This document shows, in pieces, positions 17,301-55,640 of a DNA stretch of 64,000 nucleotides. The stretch comes from Megamerina dolium. Lineage: Eukaryota; Arthropoda; Insecta; Diptera; Megamerinidae. How positions within the stretch are numbered: position 1 is the first letter of the stretch; every line of letters starts with the position of its first letter. The stretch lies in contig OY978525.1 in NCBI GenBank assembly GCA_963854835.1, positions 93,400,136 through 93,464,135 on the forward strand, given 5' to 3'. A program made the translations under genes and the position numbers. The notes under the pieces were generated by a model. That model saw nothing but the letters and a program-made list of their open reading frames with translations. It ran no database searches and was not told where the DNA came from.

Positions 17301-20300
17301 GTCTAACATCGATATCATCCTCGATTGCAAGGGCACAATCGGTATTGGGTAAAAGTTCATTGAACAATGCCAAAGTATTGTCAACGCCAAAGTTGTTAAA
17401 ATTTAGCAAAACCATGCCAGAATTCTATCGGCATATGTGTAATTCATGTCGTTCGAATGTTTATAAGACAAAATCGAATTGCATTGAAAACAATCTGAAT
17501 TCACCACCATCATCATCATCATCATCATCATTATTGTCGTCGTCGTCGTCGTCATCGGCATTATCGGCATCATCGTCACCATCAAATGTAACAACAAAAC
17601 CAAACGAAAAAACCAACCGACCGAAAACAAATATTTTTACTAGTTCATATCGTGAAATTATGAAATTCTGTAATGATTTTTTCGAACAGAGTTTCAAAGG
17701 TGAAAGTTTTGATTTGCCCAAATTTACATATGCGAAATTTAAAGAGCATAAATATGAGCGTGTCATAAAAGACTTTATTGGCACGCAAGGTTACAGCAAT
17801 GTGGAAGAATATATTGAGGATAAATTTGGACAATTTATAACACATGAACTGTCAACATATTGCCGCGAGAGCAACAACGATTCGAATCAAGCAGCATATG
17901 TAATTTGTTTTTTTCATTTGTTTCTACTTTTTTCGATTTTATCCATTTATTGGAGATTGTATAATTTCAATAATCGATTAATCGATTAAAAATTATCGTT
18001 ACGATTTTTATCATAATAGAATAATCGTTAGCATAATAGCATCGGTTATTAAAATAACCGAATACAACATTAATCGGTACATATATTTATTCATACTAAT
18101 GCTTTTCTTCTTACAGGGATATTTCGATCAAATGCAATCAGAGGAAATGATGCATCTGGTACCAGCCAGTCTGCAAGGCAAAGAGGATATATTATTTGGA
18201 AATCTGCATGAATTATACAGCTTTCACAATGAAGTCTTCCTTAAAGATTTAGAAAATTGCATTTCTACAACAGAATTAGTTGCACTTTGTTTTGTACAAC
18301 GGGTAAGGCAATTTGATAGATATTGTATGCATACTGATTACTTTTATTTATTAACTATACATTTCTTTTTTCTCTTTTCTTCTCCTTCTTCTTTTTCATT
18401 CTTCATCATTATCTAGCGCGATACATTCTATCGCTTATACTCATTCTACTGCCAAAATATACCACGTTCTGAACGTTTACGTGAGACACTCGTGGATACA
18501 CATCTATTCTTGCAAGAATGCCAAAAACGATTGGGACATAAATTACCCTTGGCTGCATATCTATTGAAACCTGTACAGCGTATTACAAAATATCAACTAT
18601 TGCTGAAAGATCTATTACGCTTTAGCGATAGTGGCAGTTGTACAAAAGAATTACAAAAAGCTTTAGATTGTATGCTGATCGTATTGAAATGTGTAAATGA
18701 TTCAATGCATCAAGTGGCAATCACTGGATTTCCGGTAATTTTCAATAGAAATAAGACTGAGTGTCAATACAAATATCAACTTTGAATGAGATATTGTATA
18801 GATTACAAATTAAAAATCATGGCCCATTCGAAATTTACGATCAAAATAAAACAATAAATAGTTTGATCAATAGATTCCAAAGACAACTTATCCCGAATTT
18901 CAATTGCTTACCTAAGATATTGCATCGCCTGATAAAATAAATAGTTGTCATTCAAAGAAATTCTTTTGGATTAGCTGCACCGGTTTGGAATCCACAATAT
19001 TGTTACGTTTTTATTCTGTGAACGTTTAATTCTATTTGAATTACCTTGTTCGATCACTGGATTCTGTTAATGATAACTGCAACACTTATTTTATACAACT
19101 ATATACAGCAACAATTTATTTAATAATCTCTATTTACAATCAACACTGTTTACAATCAACTATTTACTATAACACTTAAATGTACTTGCAACTTTTGCCT
19201 CTGTATCAATGTTTTCGCAATCACGTTCTGAATTAGATTGATTGTCAATTCTCAACACTGGCTCTATTTATACTCTGTTGGCAACACCCCAGAATCTTCC
19301 TTTATCGAGATTCTTCTCTTCCTTTCTCGTTGGCTTGTTCTGGTTATCGTTTATTTCTTTTTGTTGACATTCGTTTCGATGCTGCCAATAGTGTCAGTCA
19401 CAATAGTGATGAGTAACCAACTATCGATACTCGTTACACTGCCCTCCTCTTAACCTTGTTCGTCCCGAACAAGCTTTTATACTTCCCCTCGATATGGCGC
19501 AAGTCGCTCCAAGTGCACTACTTTAAACTTTGCTCTTTTATTCCAGGCACGTTGAATACGATACACTACGTCATTTATCTTTGCTATAATCTCATATGGT
19601 CCTTCCCAATGAGTCTGTAGTTTAGGGGACAGGCCTTTCTTTCGTTGTGGATTATGAAGCATTACAAGCTCTCCTTCATAGAATCCTTTTGAATTTGCTT
19701 TCAAGTCATACCTGGCCTTCATCTTATCGCTTATCATCTGCGACCGCTCTCTGATGAACCGATGTACTTCATCCAACTGTTCCCGCTTTTCGCTAGTATA
19801 ATTACCTTCGGTTGATCTCGTTGGTGTTACGACTCCAAATTTTAAATCAGCTGGCAGTCTTAACTCGTTTCCAAAAATTGCCATTGCCGGTGTAGTAGCC
19901 GTCGTATCATGTTGTGCGCATCGATATGCCATGAGGAACATTGGTATATGTACATCCCAGTCTCTTTGGTATTTATCTACGACTTTTCTCAAATATTCCT
20001 CCAAGGTACGGTTAAATCGTTCTACCATGCCATCAGATTGTGGATGCAAAGGTGTTGTACGAGTTTTGTATATACCCAGCATACGGCATATCTCTTGGAA
20101 TACAACTGATTCGAAATTTCGACCTTGGTCTGAGTGTAACTCCATCGGTACACCAAAACGAGTAACCCATTGGTTGACGAATACATCCGCAACTGTACTA
20201 GCTTCCTGATTTGGAATGGGGTATACTTCAGGCCATTTACTGAAGTAATCTATAACCACCAGAACATACTTGTTTCCTGCGTTGCTTATTGGAAATGGCC

Positions 20301-23300
20301 CAGCTATGTCCATAGCAATTCGCTCAAATGGAGCACCCACGGTGTATTGGTGCATCTTACCTCGACTTTTCTTAGTGGGACCTTTGGCCATTGCACATTG
20401 CTTACATTTCCGAATCCAATCAGCGACATGGTCATGACATCCAACCCAATAAAATCGGTTCTTTATTTTCTCGACGGTTTTGGTGATTCCCAAATGCCCT
20501 CCACTGGAGGCATTGTGATACTCAGCTATCACTTCATTTATTCTCGCCTTGGGTACCACTAGAAGATCATTAGTGATTTTTCCATCCACACTTTCCCATG
20601 CTCGGAATAAACATCCGTCTCGTAAGTGCAGGCTTTGCCACTGCGCCCAGTATGCCTTTGCTATTGGACTCTCATTAGCCATTTCTTGCCAATCTGGACG
20701 TATGCCCTGCTCCTTGTATTCCATAATCTTTACGAGATCTGGGTCGTTCCGCTGATCTTCTTGCACTCGTTCGGTGGTCCATGACTCCTCCGGCAATATA
20801 TTTGTAAGTCGTACGTCGACAATGTGCTCCTTGCTTTCCACTCGAGAACAATGTTTACATTCCATTTTGCAAGGACGACGAGATAGAGCATCCGCGTTGC
20901 CGTGATGTCCTCCTTTACGATGTTCGATGGTAAAATGATAACTCTGCAGCCTTTCAATCCAGCGCGCCAATTGTCCTTCTGGGTTTTTAAATTGCAATAA
21001 CCACCTTAGCGCTGAGTGGTCAGTTCGTAGATGAAATGACTGACCGTACAAGTATTTATGGAAATACTTTACACATTCCAGTATTGCGAGCAACTCTCTT
21101 CGTGTGACACAGTAATTTCTTTCTGGCTTCGACAGGATTTTACTGTAGTAAGCTATTACTTTTTCTTGCCCATCTATGATCTGAGAGAGCACACCACCTA
21201 TTCCATAGCCACTCGCATCTGTGTCCAACACAAACTTTTGACCAGGTACTGGATACGCTAATATTGGTGCTGAACAGAGTTTTTCTTTCAGCTGTTCGAA
21301 TGCTTTCTGTTGGTCCTCGCCCCACACAAATGGTTTGTTCTTTCTTGTCAACTCATGCAGACTGCTGGCGATGTTTGCAAATCCAGGAACAAATCGTCTA
21401 TAGTAGGTGCATAAGCCTAGGAAGCTTCTTAGCTCGTGAAGATTCGACGGAATAGGCCATTCTTGAACTGCTGCTACTTTCTCCTCGTCGGTACGTACCC
21501 CTTCTGTTGTTACTTTATGACCAAGATATTTAACTTCTTGCCTGAAGAGTGAACACTTTTTCATATTCAGTTTAAGCCCTGCTGATTGTATACGCTCAAA
21601 TACTTCTTTCAACTTTTCCAGGTGGTCGTTAAAATCTTTTCCCATCACAATAATGTCATCGAGATACACCAAGCACGTTTTCCAGTGTAGTCCTCTGAGT
21701 ACACGCTCCATCAAACGTTCGAAAGTAGCTGGCGCATTGCATAAACCAAATGGCATGACTGTAAATTGCCATAGACCATCGCCAATACTGAAAGCTGTTT
21801 TCTCTTTGTCTTCCTTACCAAGTTCCACTTGCCAGTAGCCACTTTGCAAATCAAGAGTTGAGAACCACTTCGCACCAGATAGTGTGTCCAGAGTGTCATC
21901 GATTCTTGGCAGTGGATAGCTGTCTTTTTTCGTAATATCATTTAGCTTTCTGTAATCCACACAGAATCGAGTACTTCCATCCTTCTTCTTTACCAGCACA
22001 ACTGGTGAACTCCATGGACTCGCTGATGGTTGAATAACACCTTGTTTCTGCATATCGGAAATCAGCTTAATGGCTTCGTCTCTTTTGGCCAATGGAACTC
22101 GTCGTGGTGCTTGACGAATTGGTCTAGAATCACCGGTGTCAATGTGATGCTTCACGATGGTTGTTCGTCCTCCAGTTTTTCCATTTGAAGAAAATATTGA
22201 ACAGTACTTCTCCAATACTTGTAAAGCCTTTTCTTTTTGCTGTTTGGTAAGCACACCTGCCCATTCCTCCATCTGTGCTTTTATTTCCGCCTTGCCAGTT
22301 CCTGATCTTCCACTTTTTATCGACGAACCCTTTTCGCAGTCTACTACGGCAGTAACTTCCTGGCAATGACCAATCACCATTCCTTTCTTTACAACTGTAG
22401 ATGTATTAGTTGGATTTAAAATTCGCACCGGTACTATTCCATTTTCTTTAGGTTCTACTAACGTCCTACCAAGTATGATGTTTTTATTCGTTATTTCTTT
22501 ATCTGCTTCCACCAGCCACAACTTGCCTGTCCCATCATCCACATTCATCTGTGCCCATATCACCGCTTCTGATTTTGCTGGAACCTCTTGGCGTTGACAT
22601 GCCAGTACTCGTTTGATGTTCCCACTACGCTTGTAACCGATGTTCAATGGTAGTTCGACATTTGCATAGCGCAGTATCCGTTGATTTAAATCTAACGTAA
22701 ATCCGTTGTCAATCATAAAATCAACACCAATTATTACGTCATCGATGATGTCAGCCACAATGAATTCATGTTCCCACGTGTAATTTCCAATAGATACTCG
22801 TTTCTTTATCTTACCCAGAATTTGTGCATCCTCACCCGTTGCTGTACGCAATTTTATTCCCATTAAAGGCTCAAACCTCTTTACCAAATCGCTCTTGATT
22901 ATAGAATGTGATGCACCAGTGTCCAGGGTTAACATGAATTCCATATTGTCCAATTTTCCATCAATAGTCAAGCTGCTTGGCACACGCTGTAGTTGTGAAA
23001 TGTGAATGATGGGGCAACCCACTGTTGGAGTCAGTTCACGCCCCGCTGAACTGACTCGATTTAGTTTAACGATGGATTTGTGTTAGTGGAGCGATCGCTA
23101 TCCACCTTATTCTCCTTCTTTTGTCTTCCTGGAGAATTGGATCTTGATCGCTTTCGTCGTAGACGGCAGTCACGCGCCATGTGTCCTGGTTTGTCGCAAA
23201 TAAAGCACTTACCAGTAAATTTGTTTTCGCGTCGACCTGTTGTTCTTCCTTCAGGCTGCACTACAGATTTGAATGCTTGACACACTGCTTCAACCAGATC

Positions 23301-26300
23301 TGCTGTTTCTGTTTCTAGTTGGCGTACCCGTGGCATTGGTCGACACATCAAACTGGCGGCTTCAAACGTCAAGGCACTACTGACTGTTTCGGCATAAGTA
23401 TTCCTTGGTGACATGACTAGGGCACGCTTTGTCTCTCCATCACGTATGCCATCTATGAAAGCCTCTATTTTGATTTTTTCGACAAACTCTTCCGAATTAC
23501 CGGAGAACGCTAGATGACATAAGCGCTCAATATCGGAAGCGAATTCCTGAAGGCTCTCATTACTCCGTTGCACTCGCGATCTCAATTCAACTCGATGTAA
23601 TTGCCTCTTGTATTCATTTCCATATTTTCGCTGGAGTGTGTCCATCAGTGACTGATAGCTACCACGATCTTTTTCTGGAACCATCTGTAACACTTCGGAA
23701 GCATTACCTTTTAATGCGACTATTAAAGCAGCAGTCTTGTCGCTATCATCCCATTGATTCTTCGAAGCTGTTGTCTCGAATTGAAGCTTGAAGATATTGA
23801 ATGGCGTGCTTCCGTCAAATGTTGGTGGCTTTAGTTTGATTGTGCTTGAATCTCGAATCACTGATGTGGCTGGTCCATTTATTTTTAGTTGGTTGAGATC
23901 GTGCTGTAATTTCTCGAACTTATCTTCCAAATCATCTACATGTTCCTTTAAATCCGTGACCTTTTCATTAATGGTTCCGGAAATTTCCTGAAATCTAAGT
24001 TCAATTCCTTTTTGTAGATTTTCGATGACGTGTTCTTGGCGAGCCGAATGTTCTTGAAGCTTGGAGTCAATGCGAGATGCATTTTCTTGTAGCTGTTGTT
24101 GCTGCTGTTGCATCATGGTTTTCATGAATTCCATGAGTTGACCACTCGAATCTATTTTGCTCTCTTCCTCAGCGTGCACAACTGCTTGTATATCGGCTTC
24201 CTCGAAGAACTCATGTTCTTCTACATTAATTCCCTTAGCCTCCATAGCTTGCCTCAGCCTCACCAGCAGTTCCGCCTTTGCACCTGATGACGATAGATTC
24301 ATCTCTACCAACAGCTTTTTAAGCTGGTCCACTTTTAGTTGGTCAATTTTCACCATCTTTACAGAATCCCACTTCTGACACCAATTGTTACGTTTTTATT
24401 CTGTGAACGTTTAATTCTATTTGAATTACCTTGTTCGATCACTGGATTCTGTTAATGATAACTGCAACACTTATTTTATACAACTATATACAGCAACAAT
24501 TTATTTAATAATCTCTATTTACAATCAACACTGTTTACAATCAACTATTTACTATAACACTTAAATGTACTTGCAACTTTTGCCTCTGTATCAATGTTTT
24601 CGCAATCACGTTCTGAATTAGATTGATTGTCAATTCTCAACACTGGCTCTATTTATACTCTGTTGGCGACACCCCAGAATCTTCCTTTATCGAGATTCTT
24701 CTCTTCCTTTCTCGTTGGCTTGTTCTGGTTATCGTTTATTTCTTTTTGTTGACATTCGTTTCGATGCTGCCAATAGTGTCAGTCACAATAGTGATGAGTA
24801 ACCAACTATCGATACTCGTTACAATATTATGCCCAGAGAGACAAACTAATAAATAGTGAGCTACGGTATTCTCTGAACAGAATCCAGGTCCATCCATTAG
24901 TCGATTATAGTCAGTAAGAGCTCTTTCAAGGACAATAAAATGAATTTTTATAAAAAAAAATATGCAGCACAAAACGAAGTTATAGAGAATTATAATTTTC
25001 GAGATATTTTGTTTTTTTTTTTTTTAATTTTCAACTTAAATTAATATCAAATCACTTGTCGGCATAAAATAACGATCTTTCTCACTCGAATATGATCCAA
25101 ATAATCGTATGTGCCGAGTTTCAGTCCTATAACTTTATATATTCCTGTACAAAGTACAGTTGAGAATATACTTTTGTATGAGAGGCAAGTATGGTTTTTA
25201 TCCGATTCAGCCCATTTTCGAGTATGCCAATTAGTTGGCAAATATAATTGTGTAGACTAAGTTTCAGCTTGATAAAATTATATTTTTGCGCTCAAAGTGT
25301 GATTAAACACATTGGACAACATACTTTTGTATGGGAGGTAGGTGTAGTTTTCATGCGATTCCGCCCATTTTCTAATATATCAATTTCGTGATAAGTGAAA
25401 TATTAAATACCAACTTTTAGTTTTGATATATTTTATATTTTCGTCCTTAAAGTGTGAAAACACACATTTAGCAAAATAGTTTTGCATCGGTACTTTTTAT
25501 TTTTGTCGTTAAAAAAGTCAGGCGAAATTTTGATTTATTGAAAAATCTGAAAATTTTCATACGAACCTGGTTATAAATTTCGCATAGTGTGCCATTATTT
25601 TTAAATATACAACCAGTGGTTTGAAAAAAAAAAAACAATTTTTTATTTTTCATTTTAGATATTTTGCTCAGTGTACTCATTGTGAACATTTGTTCTCATT
25701 TATATTTTTTCTACTTCTTCTTATATAGAGTGATCTCTCACAACAAGGTGAACTACTGCTGCAGGACTCATTTCAAGTTTGGTCTGAATCAAAGAAAGAT
25801 ATACGCTTACGTAAAAAACCACAACAACGTCATATATTTCTGTACCAAAAATCAATGCTGTTCTGTAAGCAAACTTCAAAACCAGGTCACAATAAAAGCA
25901 CCTATCAATTTAAGCATTACTTAAAGGTGAGTAAATCAATATGAAAAAGAACTACAAAATAAAACTCAAAAGAAATTGAATTAAAAATAATATACCAAGT
26001 AGGAAGAAAATGTATGACGTCACGATGAGAATGAGAGTTTTTTCTCATCCTTTTCATCTAAACATCGTTGAGCAATGGGATTAACTATTTGCCTATATAG
26101 ACTTGACAATTCTCACACTAAAATGGTGACATTCTCACGTTAATGCATTTGAATTGCATTTTCTACCATTGGTATATCTTTATCTGATGATGGTCTTTAG
26201 CAAATACAATACAATAGAAATTAATTCGAACGATCTCCTTTTCGCCCACAGATGTCACAAATTGGTCTCACCGAATCAGTGCGTGGTGATACAAAACGAT

Positions 26301-29300
26301 TCGAAGTTTGGCTGCAGGGACGTCAAGAGGTGCACACACTGCAGGCACCCACCATTGAGATTAAAAATAAATGGGTAGCCGAAATTAAGCGTGTGCTACT
26401 CAATCAATTGGAAGAGCTGAAAGGTGAAAAAATCAAACAATACGGTTTAAATCATCGTGGCTTAAGGCAGACAACATCATGGGATACACCAAATATACTA
26501 TTGGGTACACCACAACGTACAATCAGTTGTGATGCCTCATCCGAATCATCGAATCGTAATTCGAATTGTAGCAGCAGTGGTGATGATAATTGTATAACAT
26601 CGGGTGCCACTATTATAGCCAATACCAGCACCAGCATTAATAATAGCAACAATGCCAGTACTACCAATACCAGCAGCATTGGTAACATATCCAATGTATC
26701 AGTGGATAAAGAGCAATCTGAAGCATGTGGATGGAGTTCCGATTACTCAAATAGTGAAGATGAAATGTCAATGATTGAAGACAATAACACACCGGTGAGT
26801 GAGTTTGTTATTGTTGTGAATATATTTGCTGTTATTTACAATTTTCACATTTTAATTTTGATTTGATTTGATTTTTTGTATTTTTTATTCAATTTCTTTT
26901 ATTGTAATCATACATCATATAATACAATATGTTGTTGTGTGGGGAAAGTATAAGAAATGCGTACAAAATGTGTACGACAGTAGTAAATTAAATTTAATTT
27001 TCATATAGGAAATTATTTGAATCTTTTCTTCTTTCAAATTACATTTTCACATTTATTTCTTGTGGTTCATGGGTTCATGGATTATTGCAATATTTTTTCT
27101 CATATTAAATTTGATTCAAAAATAATATATTTTTAATATTAGATTAATTTATTGCGCAATTTATTTCATTTCATTTCATTATCATTATTATTTTATTTAT
27201 TTCACTTTTTTTATCTTTTCCCCCTCACATAAATACATACGTCATCTGTTCTTCTTCTATCTATATAGTATCTGATTTTATATGTTTTATATTATTTGTC
27301 TTATTTGATTTTTTTGGGTTCTCTTTTTTACTTTCATGCACAAAACACAAAAATTTCTTAAAACAAACAACTATCAACAAAAAAATATATATATATAATG
27401 TATATCTCACCTTGTATAAAAAAAACAACAACTAAATTGAACATAACCTTTGCAAATCGCAATGCAAAATGCAACAAAATGGTGTCGTGTGATTCATAAA
27501 ATGTATGCGAATATGTTGTATAAATATTGTAAAATACAATACAATCAATTAATCAATCAATCAATCAATCAATCGATCGATCAATATCAACATATACTAC
27601 ATATGAATTGTAGAGATTCATGAATTTTCTGGCACAATGGGCATACAATCATGATGGTGGCTCATATCCGCGTAACAGCAAATCGAATTCGAAATTTTAT
27701 GTTTCGGTTGAGCATTGAAATGATGTTTGAAATTCAAACTATACATGGCAATTCGAATTTACAAAAAAAACAATAAAATGAATTCATAAAAAAAAGAGGA
27801 AAAAATATGTAGTTAAATAAATTGTTAGTACAAAGTTAGTTACATACATTTATTTATGTATACTTACGATATGTAATAAAATGAAATTATAATAGAACAG
27901 TATTTATATGTATGTATGTATGTATGTATAATTCATTAAAGGCGCTATAGATTGGACAATAATGAAGAGACTACTTATTTATCATCTTTTCATTAATACA
28001 TCAATTATTCGTCGTCCATCATAAATATGTTATTGAAAAAGATGTATGTACATTACAATAGTGATAATTTATTATCATTTCATATCGAAATGTCATACAA
28101 TTGTCGTACATTGGTACTAGCAAGATCATTTGTTTGAGCTATTGTATGTAAAAGTAGCATGATCATCTCTTTCGACCACCATTGATTACACTCGACAATC
28201 ATTCGAATATATTGATAAAGTCAAAACCAGCTAACCAATTAGATAGGTCTTAGATTAATGAACCACAAAAATATCTTCATTTTATATTGACTCAGGCTTT
28301 TTTTTTTTTAAATTGGTACAATATATTTTACTGGAGGTATACTTCCCTTTGTGCCGTCGAAGCATTATTTCATACATACAAAATCGTCTTTCCCCTAGTC
28401 TCTTAGTTTCAGTTCATATGGAACCCAATTTCCATTTTTTTTTTATCATAACTATTGTTCTAACTAGAGTACTCCCAATGTTTCAGTAAGCTCTTTCTGA
28501 GTTTGACATGGGTCTTCGTTCAATAAACTCTCCAATTCAGCGTCTTCAAATGTTGCTGACCTTCCCCCACATAGCTTTCCACTGCACTTTTCTTTAGATG
28601 AAAACAAAAGAGCAAAGCTTCCCACGAATGAGATAGGCACCTACTAATTTCAATAGCATAATGCTGTCGCTACGACATGAAGGTTGTTCCCACATTATCC
28701 GATGAAATTTAGTACTACTAATGAACCCTCGAAAATCCTTCAAAAGACCTCTCCTTTATATTTCACATATTTTTCATAATTTTTGGATCTTAACTATAAT
28801 TAATAATTTTCTTGATACCAATTTCTAACCGCTAAGGAAGTTTCACAAAAATAAAAAATTCTGATGAAATAATGGTGATCGATTGGTCCCATGTCCAAAT
28901 TATAAAGCGGATGGATCAAATATTTTCGCACAAGCTCCCGAAATTTCTCTTGGGTCTCTTGACTCTATCTATATGTGGCCTAACATTGTCGGAATGGAAG
29001 ACAAAGACACTCGTGTCGGCCACTTCTGGTCACTCAAATAGATCAATTGTTGATGGTAGATGTTCCCTTTCCAATCTCACCAAATAATCAAAAATATCTT
29101 CCCGGCCGTTAGCTCTGGTTTAGCGACTGTTTGAGTCACTATACCGCACTTTGTCACATTCAAAAAATGAGTCCATTTCATTCCATTTGGCCAATGCTTC
29201 AAATGTGGAAATTTAATCCATCATGATATTTTGGAGGCAGCCAAATATTGTGCGTCTGTTTGGGTCTAACTTTATGCACATAATTTAGAAATATATTGTG

Positions 29301-44783: not shown

Positions 44784-46086
44784 CACGGTGTCCAATAAGT
44801 TTTAATAAATATGTTTTCCGTTAATTTTAAATAACAGAAAGTAGGCGTATGTTTTTATTTTGACATATATGAAATCCCGTTAGATTTCTGAGCAGCGTGT
44901 CATAGAATTCATTTCATTTCAGCTGTAGTTGAGTTAAATAAAAACGATGAAGAACGTGCGCGAAGTAATTATTAATCAATTTTCGCGAGGCATAAAGCCA
45001 TATGCAATTTTCAAATCATTGAAACAAGGTGGAATCAAGTGCGATTTTGTTTATAAGACCATAAAACGATTTAAGGAAACTGGGTCTACTGAAAATCGAC
45101 CGAAAAGTGGCCGTCCACGCACTGCCCGGACGAAGAGCAATATCAAAATTGTAAGAGAGCAAATTCGACGAAAAAGGTGCCGCTCCGTGAGAAAAATCGC
45201 TGCCTCTTTAAAAATAAGCAAGTCATCTGCTCATTTGCTTTTAAAAAAGATGTTGGACTTAAGCCATACAAAAAAAAAAAATTCACGGCGTTTCCATTTC
45301 TTCGAAGGACAAGAGAGCTGAAAGAGTCAGCAGTATTCAGGCTTGGCACGGTGGCGACGAGTTCGTATTTTCTGATGAAAAACTTTTCGTGTTGCAGCAA
45401 TCGCATAATGCACAGAACGACCGAGTATGGGCTGTTTCATTGGAGGATGTTCCTGAATCAGAATTATTTGTCCCCAGATATCAGAGTGCTCTCTCGATCA
45501 TGGTTTGGGGCGGATTTTGCAAGAGGGGTAAATTGCCGCTTGTTTTTATTGAAAAAGGGGTCAAAGTAAATGCTGTGTACTACAAAGAGCACGTTTTGAA
45601 GTCAGTAGTCCTCCCTGCTTGCAAACACTTGTTTGGTGACGACTACTATTGTTTTCAACAAGACGGAGCGCCATCACATACTGCAAAAATTTGTCAAGAC
45701 TGGTGCGAAGAGAATTTGGCTGATTTTTTGAGGAAGGATGAGTGGCCACCAAGCAGCCCTGATCATAATCCTATGGATTCCTTCGCATGGGGATATATAA
45801 CAGCAAAGCTCAACGACTATAAAATAAGAAATTTGGGGCAGCTACGTAAAACTTTACAAAAGATATGGGAGGAAATGCCCATGAATCATGTACGTGCCGC
45901 ATGCGACTCTTTTGAAAAGAGATTGGGCTTAGTAAAAAAAGCAAAGGGGGGCGTAATAAATAAAAACCTTTTATAATTTTTCAAAATGTATAAGACAACT
46001 CATTTGAATAAAATTTTTCCATTCATTTTGTCAACTTGCCTTAATATAGCGAAAAACATTTTTATTAAAACTTATTGGACACCGTG
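44784..46086 (+). mobile_element. maT-type (DD37D) Tc1/mariner transposon
   Basis: 1303 bp flanked by TA (44782-44783, 46087-46088) with perfect 26-bp inverted ends beginning CACGGTGTCCAATAAGTTTT. It contains a transposase gene that is nearly complete but frameshifted (see next entry). The perfect ends suggest a fairly recent copy. Confidence 0.88.
44947..45976 (+). pseudogene. maT-type transposase, frameshifted
   Basis: The first frame (44947-45321, MKNVREVIINQF) has the paired-type DNA-binding region with GSTENRPKSGRPRT (a GRPR-like hook). Near 45250-45330 the frame breaks close to a run of ten A, and the protein resumes in another frame at about 45340. Catalytic blocks are EFVFSDEKLF (first D), CFQQDGAPSHTA (second) and SSPDHNPMDSFAW (third), with 37 residues between the second and third aspartates, the DD37D spacing of maT elements. 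The C-terminus ends KKAKGGVINKNLL at 45976. One or two small indels appear to be the only damage. Confidence 0.82.
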
Positions 46087-51105: not shown

Positions 51106-51780
51106 CTTCTTTCAGGGACTGACCATATGGCTTGTCTAAAGGGATTTAGACATCGCGGCCCGCATGCACTCGTGCATTAATTGAGTGCATCTCGTAGACG
51201 GGACAGTGAACCGATCGCGTCCTCGATCGCTCGAGCTGTCCTCCGACGGACATCGGGAGTCGGTCGTTGTCTCGGCTGGGAACATCTCGGGGTGGAAGCT
51301 ACATGTGGTTGCTCGACGCGACGAGAGCGCGGAGGGTTTCGCTGCAATCCGTGGCGGAGATCCTCAGGTCTGCGCCGATGCCGGGGTTCAGGACGATGCC
51401 TCGTGCGTCCGCCTTCAGGTTGTCCACGTGGCGCACGTCGTCGACGCTGTTGGGTGGTGCGGCGATTCGGCGGCCCATGCCCAGTAGGGGACCGGACCGG
51501 ATGGAGGAGCGTGTGATGCGCCAATCTGCATTTTTTGTATGAGTTTGGCGAATCACACGATCCGCTCCCGTGCGACCGAGCCAGGCAGTTGCGGCAGTAT
51601 CGATGCGCGCGCACCACATCCTCCCTCTGGCTTGTGTTCATCGCCAAAAACCCGCGGCAATACCGCAGAGCGTGGAGCCGATGACATAGTTGGCACCGAT
51701 GATGATCGCTATGGGCGGAACTGGAAAGATAAAATTTGAAAACGGAAAGCTTAAGGGCTTGAGCCAAAGTCTGATAGCGA
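51106..51780 (-). mobile_element. GC-rich orphan zinc-knuckle (BEL/Pao gag-like) segment
   Basis: About 51150-51720 is much more G+C-rich than anything around it. On the - strand (51767 down) a frame reads CQLCHRLHALRYC, CRNCLARSHGSGSC and KKCRLAHHTLLHP, the double zinc-knuckle block of BEL/Pao gag. Beyond about residue 90 the frame becomes arginine-rich and looks frameshifted. It lies just past the 3' end of the BEL/Pao element and is not the same copy, since that element has its own zinc knuckles at 54.5 kb. Confidence 0.55.
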
Positions 51781-51812
51781 AGAAAAGAGATTTTTTTTTT
51801 GATATTATGATT

Positions 51813-52178
51813 TTACGCGAGCGGCAAAATACATAATTTTACTATGGGCCGCTTGAGAACGGCTGATTTTGTCCGAATATCTGCGACACGGATGTGGCCG
51901 TCAGATCCTCGATACAAATGAGTGACGCGCCCGAGACTCCATTCGTTGGGGGGCAGCAGCTCATCCTTGATGACCACCAGTTGACCTACTTCCAGCTCCT
52001 TTTGAGGGTGTTGCCATTTGTAGCGTTTGTGCAGATCTTGTAGGTACTCAGTTTTCCATCTGCGGCTGAACTGGTGGTGAAGCGCCTTGAGTTTTTCCCA
52101 TCGGTTTATCAGGGATATATTTTCCGAGTTCGCGAAAGGTACCGACAAGGTACACCGTTCAGGCGGCAGAGCTGCCAT
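51813..52178 (-). pseudogene. BEL/Pao integrase C-terminal domain
   Basis: 121 codons. RRWKTEYLQDLHKRYKW, ELEVGQLVVIKDELLPPNEW, LGRVTHLYRGSDGHIRVADI and LKRPIVKLCIL match the conserved C-terminal (DUF5641) part of BEL/Pao integrases. The catalytic core that should precede it is absent. Confidence 0.8.
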
Positions 52179-52731
52179 AATCTGTGATCAAACCTTTTGT
52201 TTGTGGATGGTACAAACTTTGCATAGAAATATTTTTTTTGCATAGAAATATGCATTTCCTTATTTGGGGCTTAAGACGAGGAATATAGAATTCTTGTCGA
52301 GCCATTCGGAACATGAGCCTTTGTTCTGCGTGTAGGAGCAGTGTATGGAGAAACTCGAGGTACAAAACGCAAAATCGGGATTTTTCAGGAAGAATTATGG
52401 GGTGGCGCTCACTATAACTAAGACCAGAATGAGCTAATCGACCATTTACTCTCATGAGATTTTCCTTGTCGAGAAAAGGATTTAAAGTCAGCAAAGAGCT
52501 TTTATTGCTGACTGCGGTTGAGCTGAGAAGAGCCTTCAGCTCTTTGGGAAAATATTGCCATTGGGCTAACGAGATTAGCCGGCTTTTTGCGAAACGAATT
52601 TCGTCCTGCGAGAGTGAGGAATTCGAAATTGGAGAAGATTTTCGCAATTTAGAGAGTCCGTTATGGACAAAACGGAAGACGTAGTGCCCTTGAAAATGAT
52701 GAGAACCGATCGAGAATGTCGGTATGGTCAT
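52159..52731 (-). pseudogene. BEL/Pao segment ahead of integrase, with zinc-binding region
   Basis: 190 codons overlapping the flanking frames. FLDKENLMRVNGRLAHSGLS and HPIILPEKSRF precede LLHAEQRLMFRMARQEFYI, then LKPQIRKCIFLCKK, the H2C2 zinc-binding region of BEL/Pao integrase. It then jumps to LYHPQTKGLI and a short end, marking the deletion of the DDE core. Confidence 0.78.
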
Positions 52732-53644
52732 CTAACGTGAGAAGAACCTCTACTTTCCTTTGCTCGGGGGGCAAAGTACTGGAAAGTGTTGGTTTTGGCC
52801 AGGCTTCTTCGGGGTGATGAAGCCATGCAGGGCCATTCCACCAAAGAGTATTGGACACAAGATCTTGGGGCTTGCATCCGCGTGTACCCAAATCAGCTGG
52901 ATTTTCGCTGCTGATGACATGGCGCCAGATAGCATTTCCAACGTTTTGGAGTATCTGGGCTGTACGATTAGCGACGTACGTTTTCCATGTGTGAGGTGGT
53001 TTTTCCAGCCATGCGAGAACGATTTGAGAGTCGGACCAGAAAAATATGTCTGAGAATTCGACATCTAAAGTTTCTTTAACTGACTTGGCTAGATGCGAAA
53101 GTAAAACGGCGCCACACAATTCCAAACGTGGTAAGCTGACCGTCTGCAGAGGTGCAACTTTTCCTTTAGCCACCAGTAAATGACAGGATATTTGATTATT
53201 CATGTCCATTGATCGTATGTACAGGGCTGCACAATACGCTTTCTCTGAAGCGTCACAAAATCCATGAAGCTGGATTCGCTTCTTGGGAGAGAATTGTACC
53301 CATCGAGGGATTTCGATGAGACCAATGGACGAAATGTTCTCCAGAAATACATTCCATTTGATGAGCGATCTGGGTTTCACGCATTCATCCCAGTCGGTGC
53401 CTTCTAACCAGAGCTCTTGGAGAAGCAGCTTGGCTTGAGTCATGATGGGCGAGAGCCATCCTGCCGGGTCAAAAAGTTTCGCAACGGCAGATAAAATTTG
53501 ACGCTTGGTAGCAGCGGATGTTGTTTCGATGGGCGATACTGAGTACGAGAATGTGTCAGTCAATGCATTCCATCGTATTCCAAGGGTTTTTGTGGCACTG
53601 GCACTTTCAAATTTTAGAAAATCAGAATCGAGAAGTTCTTCCAC
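52661..53644 (-). pseudogene. BEL/Pao A17/RNase H region
   Basis: 327 codons. [55 protein letters not shown] (RNase H-like), [12 protein letters not shown] and [13 protein letters not shown] are the standard order downstream of a BEL/Pao reverse transcriptase. The RT palm that should come first is missing. It begins [20 protein letters not shown]. Confidence 0.85.
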
Positions 53645-53654
53645 AGATATTATG

Positions 53655-54599
53655 GCGGATTCCGGTTAGGAGGATTTGAGGAATCAAATCACTACCTATG
53701 ACCATGTCAATTTGCGCCTACACGAAGCAATTCGGGTCAGCCAAATCTAACATTTCGAATTGCTGCCAATCGAGCTTAGAAATTTTAAATGTGGGTAGAA
53801 ATTTGGTCAATTGTGAGAGTACAATTGCCCGTGTCTGTAACTTTTTATTAGCCTTTGGGGCGACTCACGTAACGGTACAAGTCTGGTTAGAGTTTTGGAT
53901 GGTTTTGCCACCCATTCCAGAAATTTCGACGTGAGTTGCTTGCGAAGGAAGCCTCAGCCGATTTTGTACCTTGGTAGAGATGAATGTTCGTTGAGAACCT
54001 TGGTCGATGAGTGCTCGAACCTTGTGAAGTTCTCCAAGATGCTCTATAGAGACAAGAGCTGTGGGCAAAAGAGTTCTTTCTTCATTTGAGGTGAACAATG
54101 CTTGCACCTTTGAAGAAGATTTGGAGCATGATGAGCAGGGTTGCTCATCTTTGGATGATCGGTCCTGAGATCTCCGGCTTCTCGAGTTTCTTGAGGGGGT
54201 TATTGTCTGCTGTGTGCTCTTTTTCTTATTATGCGGCTGAAGCGTGGAGGTTTGCGCCAAAACCATGGTGTTCCTACTGGGAATATTGCCTGCGGGTATG
54301 TGAAGCATCGTGTGATGCCTTCGCTGACATTGCAAACAGGAATGTTTGCTCTTGCAGTCCCGCTTATGGTGAGTGAAGGCCAAACAGTTCTCACAGAGAT
54401 TGTGTTCTCGAACTAGCCTCACTCTATCACGAACAACTAACTTTTTAAACCGCTCACAGGATTTAAGCGAATGTGCGGCTTCGCAGATTGGACAAGAGAA
54501 TGTCCGATTGCGTTCTGCAAAAAAGTTTTGGGTTTTGTTCTGGGATCTGTTTTGTGGAAATCCTGATTTATTTGGCTTGACGCTGTTGAGCCTCTCCAC
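53655..54599 (-). pseudogene. BEL/Pao zinc knuckles and aspartic protease
   Basis: The open frame (54599-53865) has CPICEAAHSLKSC, CENCLAFTHHKRDC, CLQCQRRHHTMLH (three knuckle-like blocks), a serine/glutamine-rich spacer, then VRALIDQGSQRTFISTKV, the protease active-site block. The protease continues past two in-frame stops to IDMVIGSDLIPQIL at about 53685, where the deletion of the reverse transcriptase begins. Confidence 0.8.
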
Positions 54600-55640
54600 G
54601 ACTTCGTACCTTAGTCAGGAATTCGTCCATTTGCTGCCATGTTGGGAGATCCTTGCGGGCACTTAGGGATTGTTCCCAGAGAGCCAAGGAATCTTCAGGC
54701 AGTTTTGAACAGCAGATATGCACCAGGATCGGGTCCCAATTCTCTGTCGGGACGCCTTGAGAGGATAAGACGGACAGAGAATTATTGATCGTGGTTTGCA
54801 ATTTCTGAATTGCCTCGCTGTTCTCGTAACTCACTTGAGGGAGGTTCAAGAGAGTTTTTATCTGCTTATCGACCAGAATTCGCTTGTTTTCGAAGCGGGC
54901 CTTTAGCGCATTCCATGCCAACTCGAAATTTTCGTTGTTGAGCGCGTACTGCTTCACAATAGCTTCAGCTTTTCCTGCAGTTTTGTATCGGAGATGATAC
55001 AGTTTTTGGGCAGAAGAGAGTTTAGGGTGGTTTATGTAAACCGACGTAAACATGTCGCGAAAGGACGTCCATTCTTCGTACCCGCCGGAAAATGTTTCGG
55101 TATCACAAGTAGGAACAGTCAGGCAAATCGCGGAATTATTTGCCTGCTCTATTGCAGAAATAGAGGTAATTTCTGCTTGTGATGGAAGTTCCAATCTGGA
55201 GGATGATTGAACTTCTAAGAGATCCGAAATCTGTGCTTTTATGGTGTGCACGCGCTCTTGGCAGAGTTCCATTTTATTTCTCACTGCCATTTTGAAATTA
55301 CTGGGCAGCTCGTCCTCATCCGTTAACCCTACTCTTCTAAACGTGGACTTGACTTGATCGTAATAGCAGCTCAAGTCCTCGAGCTTAGCCTTCAGGAGAG
55401 AAGGTGTTAAGTCTTCAACCGGAATTGTTGAAAACTTCGTGCAGAAATGCACCAGGTTGTCCGCCTCGAAAATGAACTCATTCATGGAGGGGTCATAAGC
55501 TCTTTTTCTAGGAGTTTTCTTTGTTTCGGATGGAACTTTTGGCATTTTTCTTCTGCGCCTTTTGGAATAGCGCCAGCTGACTCTGCCCTACGACCTTCAG
55601 AGGCTACTTCCTGCTTTACTGGTGATTTCGTCACTGGCAT
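54568..55640 (-). pseudogene. BEL/Pao gag
   Basis: Open frame 55545-54568 (325 codons) carries FSGGYEEWTSFRDMFTSVYI, LSSAQKLYHLRYK and LVHICCSKLPEDSLALWEQS, the DUF1759-type gag of BEL/Pao. An earlier ATG (about 55640, MPVTKSPVKQEVASEGRRAE) is in a different frame and joins near the run GAAGAAAAATG, so a single-base indel probably broke the start. It overlaps the next frame by 32 bases. Confidence 0.78.

What the first reader, a model, noticed from the sequence alone, without database searches (positions are those of the whole stretch)
23011..23070. Arterivirus/coronavirus-style -1 frameshift signal in an insect gypsy element
Seen: heptamer GTTAAAC read as G TTA AAC in the gag frame, the gag stop straight after it, a 6-nt spacer, an 11-bp perfect stem with an 8-nt loop, and GGGGC in the loop complementary to GCCCC 12 nt past the stem. 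Pol is open in exactly the -1 frame through the site. Known: GUUAAAC is a working slippery heptamer in equine arteritis virus, and a 6-nt spacer with 11-bp stem 1 and a short loop 1 is the classic coronavirus-type pseudoknot geometry. Inference: gag-pol is made by -1 frameshifting here with an unusually well-formed stimulator.
Basis: partly seen in the sequence, partly recalled or inferred. Interest (0 to 1): 0.85.

Follow-up and report, generated by a model that had tools for sequence, protein, structure and literature searches.

The report
Frameshift pseudoknot in a fly retrotransposon
A young fly retrotransposon carries a slippery GUUAAAC site followed by a strong RNA knot that most likely makes some ribosomes slip back one base to produce its enzymes; distant retrotransposons show a similar layout, so it looks like an old trick of the group rather than an oddity.

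Summary
On the minus strand gag ends ...TCG TTA AAC TAA, pol is open in the -1 frame through the site, and GTTAAAC is followed by a 6-nt spacer, a perfect 11-bp stem with 8-nt loop, and a second helix GGGGC(G)/(U)GCCCC: an H-type pseudoknot. The element is a young Ty3/gypsy LTR retrotransposon, antisense in a RhoGEF intron. Chance is unlikely: 0 of 60,000 synonymous recodings reach the stability. Of 51 gag relatives 22 end in Leu-Asn-stop, and Bactrocera proteins imply the same heptamer. Of 23 distant gypsy-like loci, 10 have an ORF overlapping pol in the -1 frame; all 10 hold a heptamer there, 1.7 hits expected. One (L052, 32% identical pol) repeats GTTAAAC, the 6-nt spacer and the pseudoknot with other stem letters. 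A pseudoknot was detected in 7 of the 10, and a four-member group shows compensatory changes. Programmed -1 frameshifting is well supported; pseudoknot over plain hairpin is likely, not proven. The kind is known: GTTAAAC is also reported at the pro-pol overlap of PTLV-3 retroviruses. Divergent siblings in the host genome could not be searched.

The parts
18997..24827 (-). Ty3/gypsy LTR retrotransposon including its 4-bp target duplications ATAT; antisense inside an intron of a RhoGEF gene
   Evidence: LTR repeat and flanks; RhoGEF exon 18417-18785 and PH exon from 26225 on the + strand
24386..24823 (-). 5' LTR, 438 bp, TG...CA
   Evidence: one mismatch (at 19283) to the 3' LTR
19001..19438 (-). 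3' LTR, 438 bp
24367..24383 (-). primer binding site TGGTGTCAGAAGTGGGA (complementary to tRNA-Leu by recall)
   Evidence: sequence; tRNA assignment recalled, not tested
23061..24356 (-). gag, 431 aa: SAP domain, Retrotrans_gag, one CCHC knuckle; ends ...PSLN stop
23064..23070 (-). slippery heptamer G UUA AAC
   Evidence: implied in Bactrocera by P0121/P0145; identical in L052
23058..23063 (-). 6-nt spacer UAAAUC, begins with the gag stop
23047..23057 (-). stem 1, 5' arm (11 nt)
23045..23046 (-). loop 1 (GC, 2 nt)
23039..23044 (-). stem 2, 5' arm GGGGCG
23028..23038 (-). stem 1, 3' arm (11 nt)
23017..23027 (-). 11-nt loop crossing stem 1 (CAACAGUGGGU)
23011..23016 (-). stem 2, 3' arm UGCCCC
19477..23082 (-). 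pol open frame (-1 to gag), 1201 codons: protease, RT, RNase H, integrase; first Met is codon 47

Best explanation
This is the gag/pol junction of a young Ty3/gypsy LTR retrotransposon. Most ribosomes stop at the gag UAA and make Gag. A minority, held back by the downstream RNA structure while UUA and AAC sit in the P and A sites, slip back one base so that the tRNAs re-pair with GUU and AAA, pass the stop and make Gag-Pol. The stimulator is most likely an H-type pseudoknot (11-bp stem 1, 2-nt loop 1, 5-6-bp stem 2, 11-nt loop across stem 1) 6 nt downstream. Shown: the sequence elements, the frames, their statistical improbability, and recurrence of the layout in distant elements. Inferred: that slippage happens, its efficiency, and that stem 2 forms in the cell.
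For: Frames and 22-nt overlap. 0 of 60,000 synonymous recodings match the pseudoknot; in the coding part of this copy 0 of 1563 other codon-phase positions match it, though 49 of them form some weaker one. Gag homologues: 22 of 51 end in LN, 8 in EN, 1 in GN; 20 end otherwise, several of them fused, spliced or partial gene models. B. dorsalis gag ends KSLN-stop (P0121) and another B. dorsalis model (P0145) reads VVKLK in the pol frame; the two together fix the DNA as GTTAAAC (inference by codon table, two different gene models). Distant loci: of 23 gypsy-like loci, 10 were picked from the ORF list because an upstream ORF overlaps the pol ORF in the -1 frame; 10 of 10 carry a heptamer of the tested pattern there in gag phase, 1.71 hits expected from their own gag frames. 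The pattern (X XXY YYZ types plus any NNNAAAC) was widened after seeing relatives; the expectation uses the same pattern. L052 (pol 32% identical) has GTTAAAC, stop at once, 6-nt spacer, 10-bp stem 1, 2-nt loop 1 and 6-bp stem 2; 0 of 8000 synonymous recodings match its stem 1 or its pseudoknot. A pseudoknot was detected at the site in 7 of the 10 (strict: L033, L034, L036, L052; relaxed: L033-L036, L038, L043); relaxed control 0 of 120 sampled positions in each of the 11 elements; strict control 0 positions as good as native in each of the five elements with a strict hit, and any strict pseudoknot at about 1-5% of positions. In L033-L036, 7 of 16 pairs change on both sides against 2.8 in shuffles (0 of 500 reach it) and 0-2 when slid.
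Against: No frameshift assay. The 40 copies read (the window's own included) are near-identical at the junction and were chosen by similarity to it, so they give no covariation. A local hairpin competes for the stem 2 strand and the pseudoknot-free fold already scores -24.0 kcal/mol, which a usual pseudoknot penalty (about 9-10 kcal/mol, recalled) makes close to the knotted form. Three of the 10 distant loci (L045, L046, L051) give no pseudoknot in either search, and the relaxed search recovers neither the window's own nor that of L052. In L033-L036 the structure counted was taken from L033, there are only four sequences, the measure 'further pair types' is not exceptional (53 of 500 shuffles), and L034 fits partly; L034's stem 1 score is reached by 1004 of 8000 recodings. 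L036's pol is itself split by a second -1 overlap further on. The first triplet GUU is not homopolymeric, so P-site re-pairing is imperfect. The Bactrocera peptide allows only 7 consecutive Watson-Crick pairs in stem 1.
Confidence: 0.87

Rival explanations
1. -1 frameshifting is real, but the stimulator is the plain 11-bp hairpin; GGGGC/GCCCC is incidental or only transient because GCCCC pairs locally.
For: RNAfold prefers stem 1 extended into its loop plus the GUGGG/CCCAU hairpin. Stem 1 alone is strong (-17.2 kcal/mol, z -4.85). Three of 10 distant loci show no pseudoknot.
Against: In the synonymous null 91 of 60,000 reach stem 1 but none reaches the full pseudoknot. L052 keeps loop 1 = GC, GGGC in the loop and GCCC downstream with different stem letters. 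In L033-L036 the second helix also has 2 of 7 pairs with changes on both sides and 82% of cells paired.
Confidence: 0.2
2. Pol is made by termination and re-initiation, or from a spliced or separate mRNA, not by frameshifting.
For: The pol frame has a Met (codon 47) just before the DTGA protease motif; many database proteins begin near there; a Bactrocera gene model joins the two frames (P0145).
Against: The pol frame upstream of that Met resembles relatives as protein (GREL.PT and so on in P0145). Of 27 pol relatives with at least 45 residues before the protease motif, 12 have K-L followed after six residues by Gly, as in the window; six other K-L in the same stretches do not, 13 have no K-L. 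A heptamer in 10 of 10 distant -1 overlaps would be unexplained.
Confidence: 0.05
3. The resemblance is chance in a dead repeat.
For: Another stretch of the window (29657, minus strand) scores as high in the pseudoknot scan with no heptamer seen just before it.
Against: LTRs differ by one base in 438; both ORFs are open; 39 other near-identical copies at the junction; synonymous and positional nulls.
Confidence: 0.02

Closest known systems
-1 frameshifting of animal LTR retrotransposons (2003 survey cited in PMC5009743, passage read)
   Same: LTR element with pol in the -1 frame (28 of 51 animal elements in that survey), many with a heptamer suitably placed
   Different: That passage names no pseudoknot for these elements and does not mention GUUAAAC
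PEG10 and Ma3, domesticated Ty3/gypsy genes (PMC2800197 and PMC5009743, passages read)
   Same: PEG10: GGGAAAC heptamer, 5-nt spacer, pseudoknot, G-K-L after the shift; Ma3: heptamer with H-type pseudoknot
   Different: Host genes of mammals; a different heptamer in PEG10; not mobile elements
Pro-pol overlap of PTLV-3 retroviruses (PMC2647524 and PMC2777865, passages read)
   Same: Slippage sequence GTTAAAC, -1 frameshift, in a retroelement
   Different: Deltaretrovirus, pro-pol not gag-pol; structure not described in the passages read
Equine arteritis virus ORF1a/1b signal (Table 1 of PMC3835772)
   Same: Identical heptamer GUUAAAC; spacer 5, stem 1 of 10, stem 2 of 7, loop 1 of 2
   Different: Second loop 58 nt there, 11 nt here; other genes
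Equine (Berne) torovirus signal (Table 1 of PMC3835772)
   Same: Nearly identical geometry: spacer 5, stem 1 11, stem 2 6, loop 1 2, loop 10, no gap; here 6, 11, 6, 2, 11, no gap
   Different: UUUAAAC heptamer; RNA virus, other genes
L052: gypsy-like element in a Limnohabitans MAG contig (JASGCW010000115.1)
   Same: GTTAAAC, gag stop at once, 6-nt spacer (TARATC in both), stem 1 of 10, loop 1 of 2, stem 2 of 6 with GGGC/GCCC
   Different: Pol 32% identical; stem 1 letters unrelated; second loop 20 nt; true host unknown

Membership tests
Programmed -1 frameshift signal with H-type pseudoknot | Slippery heptamer in the 0 frame, downstream ORF in the -1 frame | tested here: met
   heptamer is of the GUUAAAC kind, not strict X XXY YYZ
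Programmed -1 frameshift signal with H-type pseudoknot | Stimulatory structure 5-9 nt downstream | tested here: met
   6-nt spacer; nulls
Programmed -1 frameshift signal with H-type pseudoknot | Second helix between loop and downstream strand | tested here: inconclusive
   Complementarity present and improbable; competing hairpin; not probed
Programmed -1 frameshift signal with H-type pseudoknot | Compensatory change in relatives | tested here: inconclusive
   Seen in a distant four-member group and by layout in L052; divergent siblings of this very family not obtained
Programmed -1 frameshift signal with H-type pseudoknot | Measured frameshifting above background | not testable with these tools
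   needs a reporter
Ty3/gypsy (Metaviridae) LTR retrotransposon | LTRs, TSD, PBS, gag then pol with PR-RT-RH-INT order | tested here: met
Errantivirus (env-bearing gypsy) | env ORF after pol | tested here: not met
   only 38 nt lie between the end of the pol ORF (19477) and the 3' LTR (19438); one search printed 178 nt because it still used the shorter repeat edge
mdg3-like clade of Ty3/gypsy | Position in a pol tree with named references | not tested
   no tree was built; the tRNA-Leu primer hint is recalled
Arterivirus/coronavirus (Nidovirales) signal | Lies between ORF1a and ORF1b of a nidovirus | tested here: not met
   flanking genes are gag and pol of a retrotransposon; resemblance is of shape only

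The most novel reading that the evidence does not exclude
Ty3/gypsy elements of animals share an ancient, structurally conserved -1 frameshift module: an NNNAAAC heptamer at or near the gag stop, a 6-9-nt spacer, and a compact H-type pseudoknot whose second helix uses the conserved pol-frame Gly codon. Its letters have been rewritten several times while its shape stayed, GUUAAAC being used in at least two distant lineages, and the PEG10/Ma3 signals of mammals are domesticated descendants of it.
Probability: 0.4. Interest if true: 0.6.

Novelty: new member of a known kind. Interest (0 to 1): 0.4.

Why it matters
It gives a clean insect case in which both the heptamer and a full candidate pseudoknot can be named, in a recently active multi-copy element. 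With the distant loci it suggests that pseudoknot-stimulated frameshifting may be a shared, old feature of animal Ty3/gypsy elements, which would explain why mammalian genes derived from them (PEG10, Ma3) still frameshift. Annotation that expects one ORF can miscall such elements: gene models in Bactrocera appear to join the two frames (inference from P0145).

Tried and rejected
Considered and rejected: stop-codon readthrough (pol is in the -1 frame, so readthrough cannot reach it); a frameshift elsewhere in gag (the pol frame is open only for the last 22 nt of gag; the one other pattern match in the gag frame, CGAAAAC, lies upstream of that); kinship with nidoviruses (shape only).

Led nowhere: two scans of viral contigs gave no relative. 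Codon-compatibility of stem 1 across 12 relatives known only as protein: total possible pairs 108 against 96 in permutations, 193 of 5000 as high: weak, and on 12 peptides picked for having K-L (three further ones, P0050, P0088 and P0118, were left out as near duplicates). Rfam at its gathering thresholds: no match in the window. Papers: the ten searches, judged by titles and starts of abstracts, listed none on a GUUAAAC signal in an LTR retrotransposon; three of the papers were then looked into, and two of them report GTTAAAC in PTLV-3 retroviruses. The 2003 survey itself was not searched for by name; I know it through the passage in PMC5009743. From papers I saw: PMC3835772 passages and its figures-and-tables section; passages only of PMC5009743, PMC2800197, PMC12992720, PMC2647524, PMC2777865, PMC9370808; the rest as search listings.

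Not achieved: an unbiased or divergent set of sibling copies from the host genome. The genome search answered once and was busy at every other try.

Full report
What is there. The features lie on the minus strand exactly as described. Gag reads ...AAT CCA TCG TTA AAC TAA; pol is open in the -1 frame from 23082, so the frames overlap by 22 nt. After GTTAAAC come six nucleotides (TAAATC, which hold the gag stop), an 11-bp perfect stem, an 8-nt loop, and a downstream strand that pairs with the loop by 5 Watson-Crick pairs, or 6 with a G-U. In pseudoknot terms: spacer 6, stem 1 11, loop 1 2, stem 2 6, no gap, second loop 11.

The element. Gag has SAP, Retrotrans_gag and CCHC domains; pol has protease, RT, RNase H and integrase in Ty3/gypsy order. 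The LTRs are 438 bp (24386-24823 and 19001-19438; the first repeat scan had reported 300), differ by one base (19283), are flanked by ATAT target duplications and followed by a primer site TGGTGTCAGAAGTGGGA. One difference in 438 bp means a recent insertion (roughly 0.4 million generations at a recalled Drosophila rate of 3e-9 per site and generation). There is no room for env: 38 nt between the pol ORF and the 3' LTR. The element lies antisense in an intron of a RhoGEF gene, between exons for the RhoGEF domain (18417-18785) and the PH domain (from 26225). The host genome is 500 Mb in 8 contigs; a 401-nt junction query met 2308 candidates, of which only 40 were scored, all printed as 100% identical after rounding, the window's own copy among them. 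The best gag relatives are chiefly tephritid flies, so the host is probably a tephritid or a near relative; no species is claimed.

More than chance. A scan for H-type pseudoknots on both strands of the window ranks this one second of 64 clusters. With the pol peptide fixed and codons drawn from the element's own usage, 91 of 60,000 sequences reach stem 1, 842 form any pseudoknot and none reaches the native one. Among 1563 other codon-phase positions of the coding region none reaches it, while 49 form some weaker pseudoknot. Of 1420 heptamers in the window 8 have a perfect 11-bp hairpin at 4-10 nt, the other 7 being all-A or A6T runs.

Sibling copies. Over up to 2884 nt, the 39 other copies fetched show three substitutions in the 60-nt signal, all in loops (index 25 in loop 1 in L027; 43 and 50 in the second loop in L057 and L023), and none in the heptamer, spacer or stems, while the flanks vary at 0.0108 per base (the divisor includes the window's own copy L017). 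This is biased, since copies were taken by similarity to the junction. Several copies are mosaics with 200-nt stretches up to about 20% different elsewhere, so divergent subfamilies probably exist, but the search that would have brought their junctions did not complete again.

Relatives known as protein. Of 51 gag homologues, 22 end in LN, 8 in EN, 1 in GN and 20 otherwise. LN-stop is what TTA AAC stop encodes; the gag tail before it is otherwise very variable. In Bactrocera dorsalis the gag tail KSLN-stop (P0121) and the pol-frame VVKLK of another model (P0145) together force AAG TCG TTA AAC TAR, hence GTTAAAC (inference from the codon table). Of 120 pol relatives listed, 27 have at least 45 residues before the protease motif; 12 of the 27 have K-L followed after six residues by Gly (10 preceded by Gly, one by Phe, one by Glu), as the window and P0145 do with Val before; six other K-L in those stretches lack the Gly, 13 proteins have no K-L and two have K-L only elsewhere. 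GKL and FKL in the pol frame mean NNNAAAC heptamers with other first triplets (inference). In the window that Gly codon is part of the stem 2 strand.

Relatives known as DNA. A scan of prokaryote genome assemblies gave 23 loci encoding gypsy-like pol, presumably stray eukaryotic DNA. I picked ten from the ORF list because an upstream ORF overlaps the pol ORF in the -1 frame; the other 13 have a single ORF or other arrangements and were not used. In L036 the ORF after the overlap ends early and the RT lies in a third ORF. All ten have a matching heptamer in gag phase within the overlap (GGGAAAC 4, GGAAAAC 2, GTTAAAC, TTTAAAC, AAAAAAC and TTTTTTC 1 each), against 1.71 hits expected from their own gag frames; nine lie 0-3 nt before the stop and that of L043 48 nt before it. 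The pattern allowed any NNNAAAC and had been widened after seeing the protein relatives. L052 is the telling case: pol 32% identical to the window's, yet GTTAAAC, immediate gag stop, 6-nt spacer, 10-bp stem 1, GC loop 1, 6-bp stem 2 with GGGC/GCCC, and none of 8000 synonymous recodings as good. Counting both searches, a pseudoknot is found at the site in 7 of 10 loci (strict L033, L034, L036, L052; relaxed L033-L036, L038, L043); elsewhere in the same elements the relaxed search found 0 of 120 positions each, the strict search some weaker pseudoknot at about 1-5% of positions. L045, L046 and L051 gave none. Synonymous nulls for the pseudoknots of L033, L034 and L036 gave 0, 6 and 2 of 8000. 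The four related loci L033-L036 show 7 of 16 pairs with changes on both sides, against 2.8 in shuffles and 0-2 in slid versions; but four sequences are few, the structure was taken from L033, one measure (further pair types) is unremarkable (53 of 500), and L034 fits only partly.

How it works. The best reading is tandem slippage of tRNA-Leu (UUA to GUU) and tRNA-Asn (AAC to AAA) under tension from a pseudoknot at the mRNA entry site, giving Gag plus a minor share of Gag-Pol. Re-initiation at the pol Met is unlikely because the pol frame upstream of it resembles relatives as protein. The open point is whether stem 2 forms: the unknotted fold is good (-24.0 kcal/mol) and a usual pseudoknot penalty (recalled) would make both forms similar in energy. 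I put -1 frameshifting at about 0.93 and a pseudoknot stimulator, given frameshifting, at about 0.75-0.8.

Comparison. EAV is listed with GUUAAAC, and the equine (Berne) torovirus with 5/11/6/2/10/0, the nearest geometry (Table 1 of PMC3835772). PTLV-3 retroviruses have GTTAAAC at their pro-pol overlap, with the remark that the AAC codon is the crucial part (PMC2647524 and PMC2777865, passages), so the heptamer is not new to retroelements. -1 frameshifting in animal LTR elements is known (28 of 51 in a 2003 survey, through PMC5009743), and PEG10 and Ma3 are Ty3/gypsy-derived genes with heptamer and pseudoknot. So this is a new member of a known kind. What may be new is the depth and structural constancy of the module across animal Ty3/gypsy elements, which is stated as the novel case.

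Noticed in passing
window 29657-29600, minus strand: A second very strong H-type pseudoknot candidate (13-bp stem 1, 7-bp stem 2, -34.2 kcal/mol in my scan) next to a long TA repeat; no slippery heptamer seen just before it; no Rfam match in the window at gathering thresholds.
   Followed up: partly
window 18417-18785 and 26225-26866, plus strand: RhoGEF and PH domain exons, probably of one host gene, flank the element, which lies antisense in the intron.
   Followed up: partly
window 51177-55587, minus strand: Pieces of a Bel/Pao-type element (Peptidase_A17, DUF1759, a sub-threshold DUF1758) in several ORFs.
   Followed up: no
window 45263-45976, plus strand: DDE_3 (mariner-like) transposase fragment, below the Pfam cut-off.
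   Followed up: no
L005, L058, L014, L016, L062, L025: Copies are mosaics: 200-nt stretches with roughly 5-20% difference beside near-identical ones, and in many copies a break in similarity at -988 in gag, pointing to recombination between subfamilies.
   Followed up: partly
host genome C3:36210256 and C3:36215740 (L013, L012): Two copies 5484 bp apart, about one element minus one LTR, which suggests a tandem LTR-internal-LTR-internal-LTR array.
   Followed up: no
L031-L053: Gypsy-like elements in bacterial MAG and genome records (e.g. Trichormus, Limnohabitans, Solirubrobacter, Mycobacterium), most likely eukaryotic contamination of those assemblies.
   Followed up: partly
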